Assembly: GCF_024055725.1 (NCBI RefSeq)
Contig: NZ_JAMXMX010000017.1
Span: 1-64,000, forward strand
From: Actinoallomurus spadix
GTDB taxonomy: Bacteria; Actinomycetota; Actinomycetes; Streptosporangiales; Streptosporangiaceae
DNA length: 64,000 bases
Reading direction: 5' to 3'
Part shown: positions 54,684 to 61,613 of the stretch, one piece after another
Layout of the letters: each line of letters begins with the position of its first letter
Numbering within the stretch: position 1 is the stretch's first letter
Program-made: the position numbers and the translations under genes
Notes under the pieces: model-generated
What the model saw: only the letters and a program-made list of their open reading frames with translations
Databases searched by the model: none
Told to the model about the DNA's origin: nothing

Positions 54684-55289
54684 ATGATACGCGTTCTCAT
54701 CGTGGAGAATACGAACCTGGTCCGTGGCGGGCTCGTCGCCCTGCTCAACGCCCAGCCTGACATGTCGGTCGGCGCCGCCTTAGATTCCGCGGACAAGGCA
54801 CTGCCCACCGCCCTGGAGACCGACCCCGACGTGGCCCTGATCGGCACGGGCCTGGCAGGAGGAGATGGCTTCGCGGTCGCGCGCGCGTTGCACGACGAAC
54901 TGCCCTCCTGCGGCATCCTGATCATGGCCGACCGCCGCCGGCCGGGCGACCTGCGTCGGGCGGTGGCCGCCGGGGTGATGGGGTACCTCCTCATCGACAC
55001 CCCGCCGGAGGACCTCGCCGACGCCGTCCGGCGGGTCGCGCAGGGCGAGCGGGTGATCGACGCGGAGCTGGCCTTCGCCGCCCTCGAGACCGTCGAGAGC
55101 CCTCTCACCGACCGTGAGCTGGACGTCCTGCGGCTCGCCGCGCAGGGGGCGTCATCCGCCGAGATCGCGGATCACCTCTTCCTGTCGGTCCGCACCGTCC
55201 GGAACCACATGTCGCGCATCATCGGGAAGGTAGGCGCGCGCAACCGGGTCGACGCCATCCGCATCGCCGGCGACGCGGGCTGGCTCTGA
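54684..55289 (+). CDS. Atypical NarL/LuxR response regulator, RamR-like
   Basis: 201 residues. A receiver-like domain is followed by a LuxR helix-turn-helix (LTDRELDVLRLAAQGASSAE, then IADHLFLSVRTVRNHMSRI). In the receiver the phospho-acceptor position is Gly54 (PDVALIGTGLAGGDG) and the acidic pocket reads Glu8-Asn9, so phosphorylation is unlikely. Orphan regulators of this type (RamR/AmfR) activate class III lanthipeptide clusters. It is convergent to the ABC genes, and its last 9 codons lie in a 42-base tandem repeat. Confidence 0.82.
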   Translation: MIRVLIVENTNLVRGGLVALLNAQPDMSVGAALDSADKALPTALETDPDVALIGTGLAGGDGFAVARALHDELPSCGILIMADRRRPGDLRRAVAAGVMGYLLIDTPPEDLADAVRRVAQGERVIDAELAFAALETVESPLTDRELDVLRLAAQGASSAEIADHLFLSVRTVRNHMSRIIGKVGARNRVDAIRIAGDAGWL

Positions 55290-57071
55290 GCGGTCGCCGT
55301 TCGCACGGCCGGCGACGCGTGCCGGCTGTGAGCGGTCGCCGTTCGCGTCGCCGGCGACCTGGGCCGGTTCCGAGCCGTCCGCCGCCCAGTGCCCGTGCAG
55401 GTCGCGGTACGGCTCGCAGCGGGTGAGCAGGTCCTCGTGGCCGCCGAGCCAGGCCCGCGTGCCGTCGAGCATGAGCACGCGGCGGGCGCGCCGCGCCGAG
55501 GTCATCCGGTGCGCGATGACGATGAGGGAACCGGGCCGCGCGGCGAAGGCCGCCTCGGCGCGCTCCTCCGCCGCCGCGTCGAGATGGCAGGTGGCCTCGT
55601 CCAGCAGGACGAGCCGCGCCGGGGACAGGTAGGTGCGGGTCAGCGCGACGAGCTGGCGTTCCCCGGCGGACAGCGTGGCCGGGTCGATCCGCGCGTCGTA
55701 TCCGCCGAGGCGTTCGGCCAGGGCCGTCAGGCCGACGGCGTCCGCGGCGGCGTCGAGCTCGGCGTCGCCCGGAGGCGCGGTGTCCGCCCGCAGGTAACCC
55801 AGGTTGTCCCGCAGCGTGCCGCCGAAGACGTACGCCTCCTGCGGGATGAGCGCGCGGAACTCCGGCGCGACCTGCGAGGCGGGCGTGCCGCCCAGGAAGA
55901 CGGTGCCGCGCGAGGGAGTGAGCAGCCCGGCGACGAGCAGGGCCAGCGTCGACTTGCCGATGCCGCTCGGGCCGACGATCGCGAGGTGGTCGCCGTCGGG
56001 CACCGTCAGGGACAGGTCGTCGATCACCGGCTCGGCGTCCGGCCCGTACGCGAAGGTGACCCGGGACAGCCGCAGGTCACCGCCGCCTCCGGCCGGGCGA
56101 GGCACGGCGGGGACCTCGCCGGTCTCGATCAGGCGGCCGAGGGTCACCGCCAGGCGCAGGCCGCTGCCGCCCAGGCCCCGGATGGCGGTGTGCAGCGCGG
56201 GGGTGAGCCCCTGCAGGACGTACGTCAGCGCCCCGAGTACCGCACCCGGTGTCGCGCCGTGCCGCAGCAGCCACGGCGCGGCGGCGACGATCGCCAGGAG
56301 CGGCAACCGGCCGCCGACGGCCAGCGCGATCGTACGTCCGGCGGCGATCCGGGCGACGGACCGGGCCGCCGCCGCCTGAGCGTCGATCAGCCGCCCGATC
56401 TTGGCGGACCTGGCGTCCTCCGCGCCGCAGGCGACGATGTCGCGGAGACCGGTGGCCAGCGCGGTCGAGGACCCGGCGATCCGCTCCTCGGCGAGGATGA
56501 GGTCACGCTGGCGGGCCATGGCCCGCGACACCATGCCGAGGAACAGGCCGAGCCCCAGCGCGACCGGTGGCACGACGAGGAGGAGCGTCACCGGCAGCAG
56601 GGCCGACAGGCCGATCAGCGCGCTCGCCAGCGTGAACACGAATCCCCGGATGACGACCAGCAACCCCGCGAAGGTGTCGCGGACGATCTCGACGTGCTGG
56701 GTGAGCCGGGCGACGGCGGCGTCACCCGGGCGGCCTGTGCGGACGGCCTCGTGGACGGCGCCGCGGACGACCTGGCGGACCAGGGCGTCCCGGAGCGGTT
56801 CGACGATTCCGGCCAGCGGCCGGTACGCCGCCGCGCTGCCGACCGCTCCCGCGGCGGCGGCGACGGCCAGCGCGGCCAGCCAGGCCAGTCCCGTTCCCGT
56901 GCGGTGGGTCAGGAACGCGTCGGTGGCGCCCGCGACGGACCGGCCGAAGACGAGGACGGGTGCCGCCTCGACCGCCGACCAGACCGCGAGCAGCGTCGCC
57001 TCACGCGGACGGCGGCGTACCGCGCCGGCCAGCACCCGGCCGCCGCTGAGACGTCTCCGCCGCCGTGACAT
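55152..57071 (-). CDS. ABC exporter half-transporter, RamB/AmfB-like
   Basis: 639 residues: six-helix membrane domain, then ATPase with Walker A GPSGIGKS, variant signature LSAGERQLVALTRTY and canonical Walker B LVLLDEATCHLD. Likely forms a heterodimer with the preceding exporter and secretes the mature lanthipeptide. Start ATG 57071 overlaps the previous stop by TGATG. Oddity: the last 60 or so residues contain three 14-residue repeats (units like PARVAGxANGD) and run antisense through 138 bases of the regulator gene. Confidence 0.85.
   Translation of the reverse strand: MSRRRRRLSGGRVLAGAVRRRPREATLLAVWSAVEAAPVLVFGRSVAGATDAFLTHRTGTGLAWLAALAVAAAAGAVGSAAAYRPLAGIVEPLRDALVRQVVRGAVHEAVRTGRPGDAAVARLTQHVEIVRDTFAGLLVVIRGFVFTLASALIGLSALLPVTLLLVVPPVALGLGLFLGMVSRAMARQRDLILAEERIAGSSTALATGLRDIVACGAEDARSAKIGRLIDAQAAAARSVARIAAGRTIALAVGGRLPLLAIVAAAPWLLRHGATPGAVLGALTYVLQGLTPALHTAIRGLGGSGLRLAVTLGRLIETGEVPAVPRPAGGGGDLRLSRVTFAYGPDAEPVIDDLSLTVPDGDHLAIVGPSGIGKSTLALLVAGLLTPSRGTVFLGGTPASQVAPEFRALIPQEAYVFGGTLRDNLGYLRADTAPPGDAELDAAADAVGLTALAERLGGYDARIDPATLSAGERQLVALTRTYLSPARLVLLDEATCHLDAAAEERAEAAFAARPGSLIVIAHRMTSARRARRVLMLDGTRAWLGGHEDLLTRCEPYRDLHGHWAADGSEPAQVAGDANGDRSQPARVAGRANGDRSEPARVAGDADGVDPVARAYLPDDARHVVPDGADRQEEVIRDLGG
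55261..55386. repeat. Three 42-base tandem repeats at convergent gene ends
   Basis: Units at 55261-55302, 55303-55344 and 55345-55386. The first two are close copies (both end GAGCGGTCGCCGTTC), the third more diverged. Unit one contains the end of the regulator gene; on the minus strand all three are read by the ABC exporter as three 14-residue units. A slippage duplication of the regulator's 3' end would explain the extended exporter tail. Confidence 0.8.
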
Positions 57072-58876
57072 CAGCGGAACACCGCCCGGTACTCCGGGTC
57101 GGCCCACAGCTCCCGGTGCGGGGCGCAGGCGCGGATCCGGCCGCCGTCGAGCCAGGCCACCAGGTCGGCGCGGGCCGCCGTCGTCACGCGATGCGCGATG
57201 ATCAGCCGGGTGCGGGGGTCGCGCGTGAGAATGTCCCCGATCCGCATCTCGGTGACGGTGTCGAGGCTGGAGGTGGCGTCGTCGAGGACGAGCACCGTGC
57301 CGGGGTGGGCGAAGGCCCGGGCCAGGCCCAGCCGCTGCAGCTCACCGCCGGAGAGCGGGGCGGCGTCCGGGGGAGTGCCGTAGCCGGCGGGCAGGCGCCG
57401 GATGAAGCCGTCCGCCTGCGCCGCGCACGCCGCCCGCATCGCGCACGCCGCCGGCACGGCCTCGGCGGCGGCTCCGGAGCGATCCGCGGGAGGCGCGGGG
57501 GCGGTGCCGCCCGTGATCGCCTCGGCGATGGTCGCGCCGAACAGGACGGGCCGGGCGAACGCGTACCCGATCGCCCGCCGGAGCGCCGTACGGCTCAGGT
57601 CGCGCAGTGGGACGCCGTCGAGCAGGACCTCGCCCGCGTCCGGCTCGGCGAGGCGGCCGGCCAGCGCGGCCAGCAGCGACTTGCCGGATCCGGACCGGCC
57701 GACGACGGCGACGGCCCGGCCGCCGGGGACGGTCAGGTCCAGTCCGTCGAGGACCGGCGCGGCCGACACCCCGCGGAACTCCAGGCGCCCGGGCCCCTCC
57801 GGCGGTGAGGCGGTGCCGTACGCGGGCGGCTCGCGGTCCAGCACCGGAGCGAGGCGGGCCGCTCCGGCGCGGGCGCGGGCCAGCCGGCCGAGCTGGGTGA
57901 TCACCGGGCCGATGTCGGCGCCCAGCCCGGCGTACTGCGTCGCGGCCAGCAACCCGCCCGCGGTCAGCCGCCCGGCGGCCACCTCCCAGCCCGCGACGGC
58001 CAGGACCGCGATCTGCAGCAGCGGAAGCGCGAGGGTGCCCCGGCCCGCGGTCGCGGCCTGCACCCGCCAGGTCGCGTGCCCGTGCTCGGCGAGCTCGGGG
58101 AGGGGCGCGAGGATCCGGGTGATCTCGCGGTCGGCCGTGCCGGCGGCCGCGACCGTCCGGTTGCCGGCCAGCGCCTCGACGAGGCGGGCGGCGATGACGC
58201 CCTGGACGGCCAGGTAGCGGCCGACGATGGCGGAGGTGTCCCGGACGAAGGCGGTCAGCACCGCGAAGATGACCGGCAGGCCCAGCGCGAACGTCAACGC
58301 GAGCCACGGGTCGAGCAGCAGGAGGGCGATCATCCCGCCGACCGGCGGCAGGACGGCCGTGATCGCGAGGACGACGGCGGACGGCGCGAGGCCCGTGTCC
58401 GCGGTGGCCGTGACGGCGCGGCTGGTCACGTCGCCCGCCGCGAGGCCGGGCGACGTGTGCGCGCCGCGCGTACTCTCGTCACCCGATCCGCCGGCGGCCC
58501 GCACCGTGGGGGAGGCGCGCCGGGCGACGCCGCAGGGCCCCTCGCCGCCTGGGCTTCGCCTCGTTCCGGCCGACGGGCCGAGGGCGAGCAGGCGGCGTAC
58601 GAAGCGATGCCGCATCCGCGCGGTGGCGGCGGCCGCACTGGTCCCGATCGCGAGTTCGGTGAGGACGTCGCCGGCCGTCGCGGCGGCCACCAGCGCGGCG
58701 TACGCGAGCGGCCAGGTGGACGTCCCGCCGTCACGCAGGACGCCGTCCACGGCGAGGCCGAGGACGGCCGGCAGGAGCGTCTCGGCTCCCGCCCGTACCA
58801 AAGAGGTGACGGCGAGCAGGCTCGCCCAGGCGCCGCCGTCGCGGACAGCCCGAATCACGAGCCCACTCGCCGTCAT
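57071..58876 (-). CDS. ABC exporter half-transporter, RamA/AmfA-like, with degenerate catalytic site
   Basis: 601 residues: membrane domain (first about 320, with an Arg/Ser/Gly-rich insertion near residue 110-150) and ATPase with Walker A GRSGSGKS, signature LSGGELQRLGLARAF and Walker B VLVLDDATSSLD. The residue after the Walker B Asp is Asp instead of the catalytic Glu, as in the degenerate site of heterodimeric exporters; its partner has the normal Glu. ATG 58876 has GGGAGA 4 bases upstream; ATG 58921 is possible. It directly follows the precursor gene. Confidence 0.85.
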   Translation of the reverse strand: MTASGLVIRAVRDGGAWASLLAVTSLVRAGAETLLPAVLGLAVDGVLRDGGTSTWPLAYAALVAAATAGDVLTELAIGTSAAAATARMRHRFVRRLLALGPSAGTRRSPGGEGPCGVARRASPTVRAAGGSGDESTRGAHTSPGLAAGDVTSRAVTATADTGLAPSAVVLAITAVLPPVGGMIALLLLDPWLALTFALGLPVIFAVLTAFVRDTSAIVGRYLAVQGVIAARLVEALAGNRTVAAAGTADREITRILAPLPELAEHGHATWRVQAATAGRGTLALPLLQIAVLAVAGWEVAAGRLTAGGLLAATQYAGLGADIGPVITQLGRLARARAGAARLAPVLDREPPAYGTASPPEGPGRLEFRGVSAAPVLDGLDLTVPGGRAVAVVGRSGSGKSLLAALAGRLAEPDAGEVLLDGVPLRDLSRTALRRAIGYAFARPVLFGATIAEAITGGTAPAPPADRSGAAAEAVPAACAMRAACAAQADGFIRRLPAGYGTPPDAAPLSGGELQRLGLARAFAHPGTVLVLDDATSSLDTVTEMRIGDILTRDPRTRLIIAHRVTTAARADLVAWLDGGRIRACAPHRELWADPEYRAVFR

Positions 58877-58931
58877 CGGTCTCCCTGCCTTCATGGCCCG
58901 GGCCATGGTTCCCGGGGCCATTCGTCGGTCA

Positions 58932-59045
58932 TCAGAGGCAGATCGTGATGCTGTGCGAGCTGTGGCACAGCAGGCTCAGGCTGCTGTTCGTCTCGCCGCC
59001 ACCACCCGGGGTGGACTCCATGCCCTGCATGTCGAGAAGCGTCAT
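58932..59045 (-). CDS. Class III lanthipeptide precursor, SapB/AmfS-like
   Basis: 37 residues. The leader begins MTLLDMQGMESTP, matching the LxDLQ-type recognition motif of SapB (RamS) and AmfS leaders. The core holds two ring motifs, SSLSLLC (Ser21, Ser24, Cys27) and SSHSITIC (Ser29, Ser32, Cys36), ending in Cys-Leu. The second fits the class III Ser-x-x-Ser-x-x-x-Cys pattern; the first is one residue shorter. AGGAGG, which overlaps the lanKC stop, precedes ATG 59045. The product is expected to be a surface-active morphogenetic peptide like SapB. Confidence 0.88.
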   Translation of the reverse strand: MTLLDMQGMESTPGGGGETNSSLSLLCHSSHSITICL

Positions 59046-59051
59046 CGTGTT

Positions 59052-61613
59052 TCACCTCCTCACCGTGGTCGTGTCTCCGACACCCGCGAGGGTTCTCGCG
59101 GGTTGCTCTGGTGCCGCCAGGAACGGCAGGTGGACCGGCCGGTCGTGCAGTGCCGCGCCGAGCGCGAGCAGGACGCCGGCGGTCCCGGTGCCCAGGTCCA
59201 TCGAGAGCCGGAGCAGGTTCTCGCCGATGAAGGCCAGACCGCCCTGGTACGGGACGGCGTGCCAGGCCAGGTCGCGGATGTGCGCCGCCGCCCGCGGGTC
59301 GCCCAGCCGGGCGAGGTGGAGCAGCATTCCCGCGCGCCCGCTGAACAGCCCGGCCTGGGCGTAGTAGACGGACCGGGCGGCGAGGCCGATCGCCTCGCGG
59401 GCCTCGCGGAACCGCTCGTCCTCCCGGTGCGCGAGGTAGTCGTCGATGACGAGACCGATCCCCACGCTGCCGCGGCCGAGGTACGGCAGGATGCGCGATC
59501 CCTCGTCGACGTGCAGTGCGCCGTTCTTGTCGGTCACGCACCGCTGGAGGTCCAGCCGGATGGCCGTCGCGGCCAGGTCGAGAAGGTTCGGGTCGCCGGT
59601 CCGTTCGTAGAACCGGACGAACATCAGCGCGGGGCCCGCCATGCCGCGCAGCAGCCCGGGACGGGACGGTGCCCCGGTCGCCGTGACCACCTGGTCGGCG
59701 ACCAATTGGGCCGCCCGCGCCGCGGCGTCCCGGAGGTCCGGTGTCTCCAGCGGCCCGGCGAGATGCTCCAGCGTGAGCGCGATACCCGGCAGCCCGCCGT
59801 ACAGGTCGGTGCCGAGGCGCTCCCACCGTTCGCCGAGGCAGATGTCGACGACCTTGCCGGCGGCATCGAGGTGACCGAGGTGGGCCAGCGTGTACGCGGC
59901 GCCGTACAGGCCGTCGTACAGTCCGAGGCCGGTGCCGGGCGGCGGGGCGGTGGCGTGCTCGATCAGCCAGTCCGTGTGTTCGACCGGGCATCCGGTGACG
60001 TCCAGGGCGTAGAGCACGCCCGCCGCGCCGTACGCCAGGCCGAGGGCGGCACCGCCGAACTGCTGGATGTCGCCGGGGAAGAGCCGGTCGTCACGGTGCG
60101 GCGTGGCACTGGCCAGGATGGCCCTGCCGAGCGCCGAGCGCGTCTCCTCCCAGCCGGCCCGATCGGGGCGCAGTGCGGGGACCGTCCCCACGAGCCGGGT
60201 TCCCGTGGCGACGTCGCGGGAGATCTCGGCCACGGCGGACTCGAGGTAGCCCTCCGGCAGCGGGAACCGCTCGGCGATCACCTCGGCGAGGTGGGCGGCC
60301 TTCGTACGGTCGAGCTGGAGGATCGTGGTCAGCGGCGCGAACAGCGCGAGTTTCAGGCACGCGAGGCAGTAGTCGTCGACCGCGGTCCCTCTGCGGTCCG
60401 GTGGAGCCAGGAATCCCGGGTTGGCGAGGATCTGCCGGCCCTCGTCGGCGGCCGGTGCCGCCGTCTCGAAGTCGATCAGCGCGACGCCGTCGTCGGGGCG
60501 CACCATGATGTTGAACATGTGCAGGTCGTTGAAGACGACCCCGCGGGCGTGCACGGCCTCGACGACACGTTCGGTGCCCTCGTAGACCTTGAGCGCCCAT
60601 GCCGTGTACTCGGCGACCCGGCCCGGATCGGGTTCGGGGTCGAGCAGGGGGTGCCGCTCGGCGAAGAAGGTGTTGAGCGGCCGTCCCTCGATGAACTCCT
60701 GGGCCAGGAATTCGTGGTCGCCGAGGGTGAAGTAGTCGTGCACCCGGGGGACGCCGTCGATGCCGGCGAGGCGCCGGAGCATGTCGCGCTCACGGCGGAG
60801 CCGGGTCACCGCGTCGGCGCCGTCGGCCGCCAGCCCGGCGTACGGCCGGCCCTCTTTGAGCACGACGCGTTCACCGGTCCGGGTGTCCTCGGCGGCGTAG
60901 ACGCCGCCGCCGTTGGAGAAGTGCAGTGCCTCGGTCACCCGGTACGGCAGGCCGGCCATCGTCACCGCGTTGCGGGCGTCGAGGTGCGGTCGCAGGAAGC
61001 CGGGTACGGTCACCCAGTCCGGTATCCGGAAGACCGGGTCACGGCGGTCGGGCACGAGCCGTCCCTCGCCGTCCTCGATGGCGGAGACGAGCCGTCCGTC
61101 CTCGTCCTTGCAGTGGCGCTCGGCGAAGCCGCCGTAGCGTACGTACAGCGGGCCGTTCCCGATCCGCAGGTCGGTGAGGATGTACGGGCCGGGCTCGCCG
61201 GCGAGGAGTTCGCCGAGTTCACGCAGGATCTGCTCGAGTTCGGCCTCGTCTCGCGGATAAATGGTGACGAGTTTCCCGCTTCCGCCGCGTCCCGCGTATT
61301 TGGCGTTACGCATCAAAAGGACGTCGGCGCTACGCAGGTGCTTGAAGGAGATCGTCCTGGGAACGCAGTAGTCTCGGACCCGTACGAGCACGTCTTCGGC
61401 GTTCTCGTGACACGCCGCCACGTGTATCTTCCAGCCCTGTTGCGGGATCTCCTGAGCCGGCGGGACGTAGACCAGCCATTCGCTGCGGCGGATCCGCTGC
61501 CATCCCTCGGGAAGGGGCTCGTCGGCGATGGCGAAAGCCGGGCGCTCCTGACCGTCCATGACGTCATAGAAGAGCCTGTCTTTCTGGCAATACAGCTCGT
61601 ACTGCTTTTCCAC
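59052..61613 (-). CDS. Class III lanthionine synthetase LanKC, RamC-like
   Basis: 853 residues. The N-terminal part (1-215) is the lyase-like domain. The kinase (about 235-480) has Lys253, the catalytic loop FNDLHMFN (Asp363, Asn368) and DFE (Asp381). The C-terminal part (about 520-853) is a LanC-like cyclase lacking the full zinc-ligand set, as in class III. It phosphorylates, dehydrates and cyclises Ser/Cys of the precursor into lanthionine or labionin rings. Start GTG 61613 has AGAGGA upstream. First gene of the lanKC-lanA-ABC-ABC operon. Confidence 0.92.
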   Translation of the reverse strand: MEKQYELYCQKDRLFYDVMDGQERPAFAIADEPLPEGWQRIRRSEWLVYVPPAQEIPQQGWKIHVAACHENAEDVLVRVRDYCVPRTISFKHLRSADVLLMRNAKYAGRGGSGKLVTIYPRDEAELEQILRELGELLAGEPGPYILTDLRIGNGPLYVRYGGFAERHCKDEDGRLVSAIEDGEGRLVPDRRDPVFRIPDWVTVPGFLRPHLDARNAVTMAGLPYRVTEALHFSNGGGVYAAEDTRTGERVVLKEGRPYAGLAADGADAVTRLRRERDMLRRLAGIDGVPRVHDYFTLGDHEFLAQEFIEGRPLNTFFAERHPLLDPEPDPGRVAEYTAWALKVYEGTERVVEAVHARGVVFNDLHMFNIMVRPDDGVALIDFETAAPAADEGRQILANPGFLAPPDRRGTAVDDYCLACLKLALFAPLTTILQLDRTKAAHLAEVIAERFPLPEGYLESAVAEISRDVATGTRLVGTVPALRPDRAGWEETRSALGRAILASATPHRDDRLFPGDIQQFGGAALGLAYGAAGVLYALDVTGCPVEHTDWLIEHATAPPPGTGLGLYDGLYGAAYTLAHLGHLDAAGKVVDICLGERWERLGTDLYGGLPGIALTLEHLAGPLETPDLRDAAARAAQLVADQVVTATGAPSRPGLLRGMAGPALMFVRFYERTGDPNLLDLAATAIRLDLQRCVTDKNGALHVDEGSRILPYLGRGSVGIGLVIDDYLAHREDERFREAREAIGLAARSVYYAQAGLFSGRAGMLLHLARLGDPRAAAHIRDLAWHAVPYQGGLAFIGENLLRLSMDLGTGTAGVLLALGAALHDRPVHLPFLAAPEQPARTLAGVGDTTTVRR

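What the first reader, a model, noticed from the sequence alone, without database searches (positions are those of the whole stretch)
58932..59045. SapB-like lanthipeptide precursor with one contracted ring motif
The 37-residue precursor has a SapB/AmfS-type leader, but its first ring motif reads Ser-x-x-Ser-x-x-Cys (SSLSLLC) instead of Ser-x-x-Ser-x-x-x-Cys, while the second ring is canonical. A smaller first ring or different ring topology (lanthionine versus labionin) would follow. It was too short to be picked out as an ordinary gene.
Basis: partly seen in the sequence, partly recalled or inferred. Interest (0 to 1): 0.65.

Follow-up and report, generated by a model that had tools for sequence, protein, structure and literature searches.

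The report
SapB-type peptide, shortened first ring
This small gene encodes an ordinary aerial-growth peptide (SapB type) of a soil actinobacterium; its slightly shorter first ring motif is not a fluke but the usual form in its close relatives, and it lies within the range already published for such peptides.

Summary
The ORF is real: minus strand, 58932-59045, 37 aa. Its first motif is Ser21-x-x-Ser24-x-x-Cys27, its second Ser29-x-x-Ser32-x-x-x-Cys36. It passes the curated cut-offs of NCBIfam NF033212 (SapB/AmfS) and Pfam RamS and sits in a complete ramC-S-A-B cluster with a convergent response regulator. The nearest named LanKCs are from Actinoallomurus. The short motif is no error or strain oddity: all 11 precursors matched in 8 of 8 genomes of the genus have it, as do 36 of the 39 genomes that matched this peptide among 341 searched. 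Of 80 named LanKC loci it is in 16, against 63 canonical and 1 neither. Canonical precursors also occur close by. The core is under purifying selection (pN/pS 0.16 over 20 chosen sequences). A published class III motif, SxxSx{2,5}C, already includes it. Best reading: a lineage-typical SapB-like morphogen whose first thioether closes one residue shorter. Lanthionine or labionin cannot be told from sequence. Interest is low.

The parts
58932..59045 (-). ramS/amfS-like class III lanthipeptide precursor, 37 aa
   Evidence: translation; NF033212 E 5.9e-11; PF19402 E 2.7e-10
58989..59045 (-). approximate leader (residues 1-19) with LLDMQ recognition motif; the exact cleavage site is not known
   Evidence: Sequence; the 11 precursors of the genus have LLDMQ; LLDLQ is the common form in the relatives read
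58965..58985 (-). first ring motif S21-S-L-S24-L-L-C27 (SxxSxxC)
58938..58961 (-). second ring motif S29-S-H-S32-I-T-I-C36 (SxxSxxxC, canonical)
59052..59059 (-). ribosome-binding site GGAGGTGA, overlapping the LanKC stop codon
   Evidence: Sequence; upstream stretches in relatives
59052..61613 (-). class III synthetase LanKC (RamC/AmfT type), 853 aa
   Evidence: NF038151 1091 bits, cut-off 575; RamC_N, Pkinase and LANC_like; matches solved LanKC chains such as 8sap_A; DFE in the alignment to 7wj6_A
57071..58921 (-). ABC exporter RamA-like, 616 aa
   Evidence: Pfam ABC_membrane and ABC_tran; collinear in relatives
55152..57107 (-). ABC exporter RamB-like, 651 aa
   Evidence: Pfam ABC_tran; collinear in relatives
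54684..55289 (+). RamR-like response regulator, convergent with ramB, 201 aa
   Evidence: Response_reg and GerE; same place and orientation in 60 of 68 loci that reach 5 kb beyond LanKC

Best explanation
This is the ramS/amfS gene of an Actinoallomurus-like actinobacterium. Shown: the precursor, its LanKC, two ABC exporter genes and a response regulator form a SapB-type cluster, and the short first motif is shared by the whole genus as held here and is under purifying selection. Inferred: the LanKC binds the LLDMQ leader, phosphorylates and eliminates the ring serines to dehydroalanine, and closes two thioether rings. Ser24-Cys27 gives a 13-membered first ring instead of the 16-membered ring of the SxxSxxxC form; Ser32-Cys36 gives a normal second ring. 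Ser21 and Ser29 are either left as dehydroalanine (SapB-like lanthionines) or captured as labionins. The exporters secrete the peptide, the leader is cut off by a protease not identified here, and the amphipathic product lowers surface tension so that aerial hyphae can rise. The shortening probably arose as the loss of one codon between Ser and Cys, tolerated because class III synthetases accept variable spacing.
For: Family matches above curated cut-offs. Order ramC-ramS-ramA-ramB plus convergent regulator in 60 of 68 named loci that reach far enough. Short motif in 11 of 11 precursors matched in 8 of 8 genomes of the genus, in 36 of the 39 genomes that matched this precursor among 341 searched, and in 16 of 80 named LanKC loci, against 63 with spacing three and 1 with neither. 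pN/pS 0.16 over the 18-residue core of 20 sequences chosen from the short-motif set. Among the 28 distinct short-motif precursors both motif positions are Ser, never Thr. Five chaplin-domain matches above the Pfam cut-off in the same genome fit an aerial life style.
Against: No product, ring size or activity is shown. Ring type is hard to predict from the synthetase (PMC13380574). No leader protease is assigned. The search used this very peptide as query, and the 80 loci were picked by LanKC similarity, so both favour the short motif; in the unnamed group g38, 27 genomes show it but the RamS matches read in 10 others are canonical. That the motif positions are Ser or Thr is built into the 28-precursor set. 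The 20 sequences used for pN/pS were chosen by hand and are related, so the ratio is descriptive.
Confidence: 0.85

Rival explanations
1. The first ring uses other residues, for example Ser22 to Cys27 with Thr19 as the labionin partner (TxxSxxxxC), so that the ring is not shortened.
For: The window peptide fits this alternative too: gaps 2 and 4 were both found for it.
Against: Residue 19 (position -8 from the first Cys) is V, G, A, N, T, F or H among 28 short-motif precursors, T in only one; the positions -6 and -3 are always Ser.
Confidence: 0.08
2. Sequence or assembly error: one codon is missing and the true motif is SxxSxxxC.
For: None found.
Against: The same motif lies in 8 of 8 genomes of the genus and in 28 further genomes matched, with synonymous codon differences among those compared.
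Confidence: 0.01
3. The cluster makes a class III peptide with another role (signal, antimicrobial, or metal binding through His28/His31) rather than a surfactant morphogen.
For: His follows the first Cys in 22 of 28 short-motif precursors. A class III peptide with a histidine cross-link, noursin, is known (PMC10206099, passages).
Against: Noursin synthetases form a subgroup distinct from RamC (PMC10206099, passages), and the cluster here has the ram/amf layout. I did not compare this LanKC with NorKC directly.
Confidence: 0.1

Closest known systems
SapB (RamS, Streptomyces coelicolor) and AmfS (S. griseus)
   Same: Leader type, two-motif core, RamC-type synthetase, two ABC exporters, response regulator; family models NF033212 and PF19402 passed
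   Different: First motif SxxSxxC instead of SxxSxxxC; Met for the second Leu in the leader motif LLDLQ; His/Ser-rich linker CHSSHS. The SapB sequence itself was recalled, not fetched; Micromonospora precursors read here end in cores such as GSRASLLLCGDSSLSVTTCN
Durhapeptin (Streptomyces durhamensis) and rochsin A (S. rochei)
   Same: Class III precursors; durhapeptin belongs to the SapB/AmfS family with a synthetase grouped with RamC and AmfT
   Different: Durhapeptin has two SXXSXXXC motifs and, by MS and hydrolysis, two labionins; rochsin A is cited there as having two labionins (PMC13380574, passages). Here the first motif is shorter and the chemistry unknown
Class III motif SxxSx{2,5}C as defined for labionin/lanthionine peptides
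   Same: The published range explicitly includes two residues between Ser and Cys (PMC11251773, passages)
   Different: That paper uses it as a mining pattern; the passages I read show no solved structure for a spacing-two ring

Membership tests
SapB/AmfS (RamS) lanthipeptides | Precursor passes NF033212 and PF19402 cut-offs | tested here: met
   42.3 against 25 bits; 41.0 against 24.3 bits
SapB/AmfS (RamS) lanthipeptides | Leader motif LLDLQ or close variant | tested here: met
   LLDMQ, shared by the 11 precursors of the genus
SapB/AmfS (RamS) lanthipeptides | Two tandem SxxSxxxC motifs in the strict spacing | tested here: not met
   First motif has spacing two, second has three. Strict spacing of the first motif is usual but not universal: 73 of 92 precursors in the 80 named loci. 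It is therefore not treated as required
SapB/AmfS (RamS) lanthipeptides | Adjacent RamC-type LanKC, two ABC exporters and response regulator | tested here: met
SapB/AmfS (RamS) lanthipeptides | Secreted surfactant that restores aerial hyphae | not testable with these tools
   Needs culture work
Class III lanthipeptides (SxxSx{2,5}C) | Motif with two to five residues between Ser and Cys | tested here: met
   Both motifs fit; definition in PMC11251773
Class III lanthipeptides (SxxSx{2,5}C) | LanKC with lyase, kinase and cyclase-like domains | tested here: met
   RamC_N, Pkinase, LANC_like; NF038151 1091 bits
Class III lanthipeptides (SxxSx{2,5}C) | Lanthionine or labionin cross-links in the product | not testable with these tools
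   Needs MS or NMR
Noursin-type (LanKC-Hbt) peptides | Synthetase in the separate NorKC cyclase subgroup | not tested
   No direct comparison with NorKC was made

The most novel reading that the evidence does not exclude
Actinoallomurus and many Actinomadura share a distinct, strongly conserved SapB subfamily (core NSSLSLLCHSSHSITICL or close) whose first cross-link is a compact i/i+3 thioether, perhaps a labionin built of two i/i+3 bridges, not yet structurally described; its fixed ring size and His/Ser linker could make it a lineage-specific morphogen, with a similar shortening arising separately in Streptomyces aculeolatus.
Probability: 0.35. Interest if true: 0.35.

Novelty: new member of a known kind. 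Interest (0 to 1): 0.18.

Why it matters
It gives a natural test of how much ring-size variation class III synthetases and SapB function tolerate, since closely related clusters carry the short and the normal first motif. Beyond that it is routine annotation of a known developmental peptide family.

Tried and rejected
Sequence-error reading: rejected on independent assemblies. Alternative Thr19/Ser22 pairing: not conserved. RNA element over the gene: no support, the fold of 58895-59070 minus is no better than shuffles (z 0.59; 145 of 200 shuffles fold as well), and no promoter- or terminator-like site was found between 58700 and 59300. A second class III synthetase in the genome: the only other long candidate is a class IV LanL by its best model (NF038150 736.7 bits against 650; NF038151 339.5 against 575); I did not look for its own precursor beyond listing ORFs. 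Plasmid collection: 83 records hold a LanKC relative, all under 60% identity.

Literature: one search was badly posed (one term matched unrelated words) and its listing is not used; one search repeated SXXSXXC alone and found 0 papers. Searches pairing Actinomadura (14 papers, one listed; 67 papers, one listed) or Actinoallomurus (9 listed) with lanthipeptide or SapB terms listed no paper that, by title or start of abstract, treats this subfamily; I opened passages of one listed there (PMC13380574) and of PMC4255298, PMC11251773, PMC10604976 and PMC10206099, and no other. The library holds open-licence papers only.

Coverage: (297 and 345 genomes) found RamS matches in 165 and 198 genomes, but loci came only for the best-scoring matches; 32 such loci (L013-L044) were read and none had a first motif outside spacing three. 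Most of the other matches were not read. In one search, three loci (L172, L173, L177) gave no precursor to my finder. In one search the finder also picked up chance ORFs (for example antisense ones); these rows were dropped, and the counts quoted for the 80 loci come with a stricter leader pattern.

Full report
The observation. Bases 58932-59045, read on the minus strand, encode MTLLDMQGMESTPGGGGETNSSLSLLCHSSHSITICL. The first motif is S21xxS24xxC27, the second S29xxS32xxxC36. The peptide passes the curated cut-offs of NCBIfam NF033212 (SapB/AmfS family, 42.3 against 25 bits) and Pfam PF19402 (RamS, 41.0 against 24.3 bits). Its ribosome-binding site GGAGGTGA overlaps the stop codon of the gene upstream (sequence).

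The surroundings. Upstream lies a full class III synthetase LanKC (853 aa; NF038151 1091 bits against a cut-off of 575; domains RamC_N, Pkinase, LANC_like). It matches solved LanKC chains such as 8sap_A, and a solved kinase-domain chain, 7wj6_A (named only as serine/threonine protein kinase), with the residues DFE in the matched stretch. Downstream lie two ABC exporter genes and then a response regulator that runs the other way. Of 80 named LanKC loci, 68 reach at least 5 kb beyond LanKC, and 60 of these show the order LanKC, RamA, RamB and the convergent regulator; 8 do not (on the matches). The nearest named LanKCs are from Actinoallomurus soli (89%) and A. purpureus (88%), so I take the window to be Actinoallomurus or very close; this is inference. 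The genome also has five chaplin-domain matches above the Pfam cut-off and, on another contig, a class IV LanL.

Is the short motif special to this strain? No. A search of the genus found a RamS match in 8 of 8 genomes, 11 places in all, and all 11 precursors read S[ST]LSLLC. A search of 341 genomes of the wider family with this peptide found matches in 39. The matched precursor was read in all 39: 36 have the short first motif and 3, all of one other genus (g67), have SxxSxxxC. Since the query was this peptide, that search favours the short form. Against a simple rule: in group g38, which holds 27 of the 36, the RamS matches read in 10 further genomes have a canonical first motif of another kind (for example SGLTVLTC), and the 32 loci read from the best RamS matches show none outside spacing three. 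In the 80 named LanKC loci, 92 precursors were read: 73 have spacing three, 18 spacing two and 1 neither; by locus 63, 16 and 1. The 16 are the 5 named Actinoallomurus loci, 10 of the 11 named Actinomadura loci, and Streptomyces aculeolatus. The last motif has spacing three in all 92; 8 of these also fit spacing two and 3 also fit five. Named and unnamed sets overlap in organisms.

Is it under selection? In 20 short-motif sequences that I chose (named and unnamed, from the genus, from Actinomadura, and one of g51), the 18-residue core gives pN/pS 0.16. Residue 22 is Ser or Thr; Ser21, Ser24, Cys27, Ser29, Ser32 and Cys36 do not vary in these 20. Across 28 distinct short-motif precursors from loci L001-L178 the two motif positions are always Ser; that they are Ser or Thr is built into the selection, that they are never Thr is not. 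One of the 28 is an odd type found in two genomes of g51 (L170, L171), not a close homologue.

How often did it arise? The short motif covers the 7-row Actinoallomurus clade, a 12-row clade of Actinomadura and unnamed rows, and one g51 row (L148) on an open fork. Canonical Actinomadura craniellae and three unnamed g67 rows lie beside the 12-row clade. It occurs apart from these in S. aculeolatus (one assembly, not cross-checked) and in the odd L170 type.

What it probably does. From the ram/amf layout and established knowledge of SapB and AmfS, the product should be a secreted amphipathic peptide that helps aerial hyphae leave the substrate. Counting atoms, a Ser-x-x-Cys thioether is a 13-membered ring against 16 for Ser-x-x-x-Cys; rings of this size are common in other lanthipeptides such as nisin (recalled). 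Whether Cys27 forms a lanthionine with Ser24 or a labionin with Ser21 and Ser24 is open: a 2026 paper on durhapeptin reports that synthetases grouped with RamC and AmfT make lanthionine-only, labionin-only and mixed peptides, and that the type is difficult to predict from the synthetase sequence alone (PMC13380574, passages read).

What is known. A 2024 survey gives the class III motif as SxxSx{2,5}C (PMC11251773, passages read), so spacing two is inside the accepted range. I found no structure with that spacing in the passages read, and no paper in the held library with the string SXXSXXC; other spellings were not searched cleanly. The finding is therefore a correct observation of an ordinary family member with a lineage-typical variation.

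Noticed in passing
window 55152-55289: The response-regulator gene (+) and ramB (-) overlap tail to tail by 138 bp. By tblastn match ranges the two also overlap in 49 of the 60 named loci with the full gene order, mostly by 111-132 bp.
   Followed up: partly
window 55253-55378: Three tandem 42-nt copies (the second and third 83% and 79% like the first) begin at the 3' end of the response-regulator gene and lie inside the C-terminal part of ramB on the other strand.
   Followed up: no
L170, L171 (1501 onward, minus): Two genomes of g51 carry MALLDLQGMELAEIPGGHSSHSKSCGGGGASTLSLLLC, in which the first motif SSHSKSC also has spacing two but a different composition.
   Followed up: no
window core codons, 58935-58988: In 20 chosen sequences the ring serines 21, 24 and 29 are always AGC and Ser32 AGC or AGT, while the non-ring Ser30 is always TCN.
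   Followed up: no
L174, L175, L176, L178: Two genomes of group g38 (G115, G228) carry pairs of precursors that resemble labyrinthopeptins (resemblance recalled; for example ending SNGSVWECCSTGSWVPFTCGC) and match the RamS model near its cut-off.
   Followed up: no
L047, L057, L005: Some loci of the Actinoallomurus type carry two tandem copies of the precursor gene.
   Followed up: no
L192:3158-5902: The same genome has a class IV LanL synthetase (914 aa, NF038150 736.7 bits) on another contig.
   Followed up: partly
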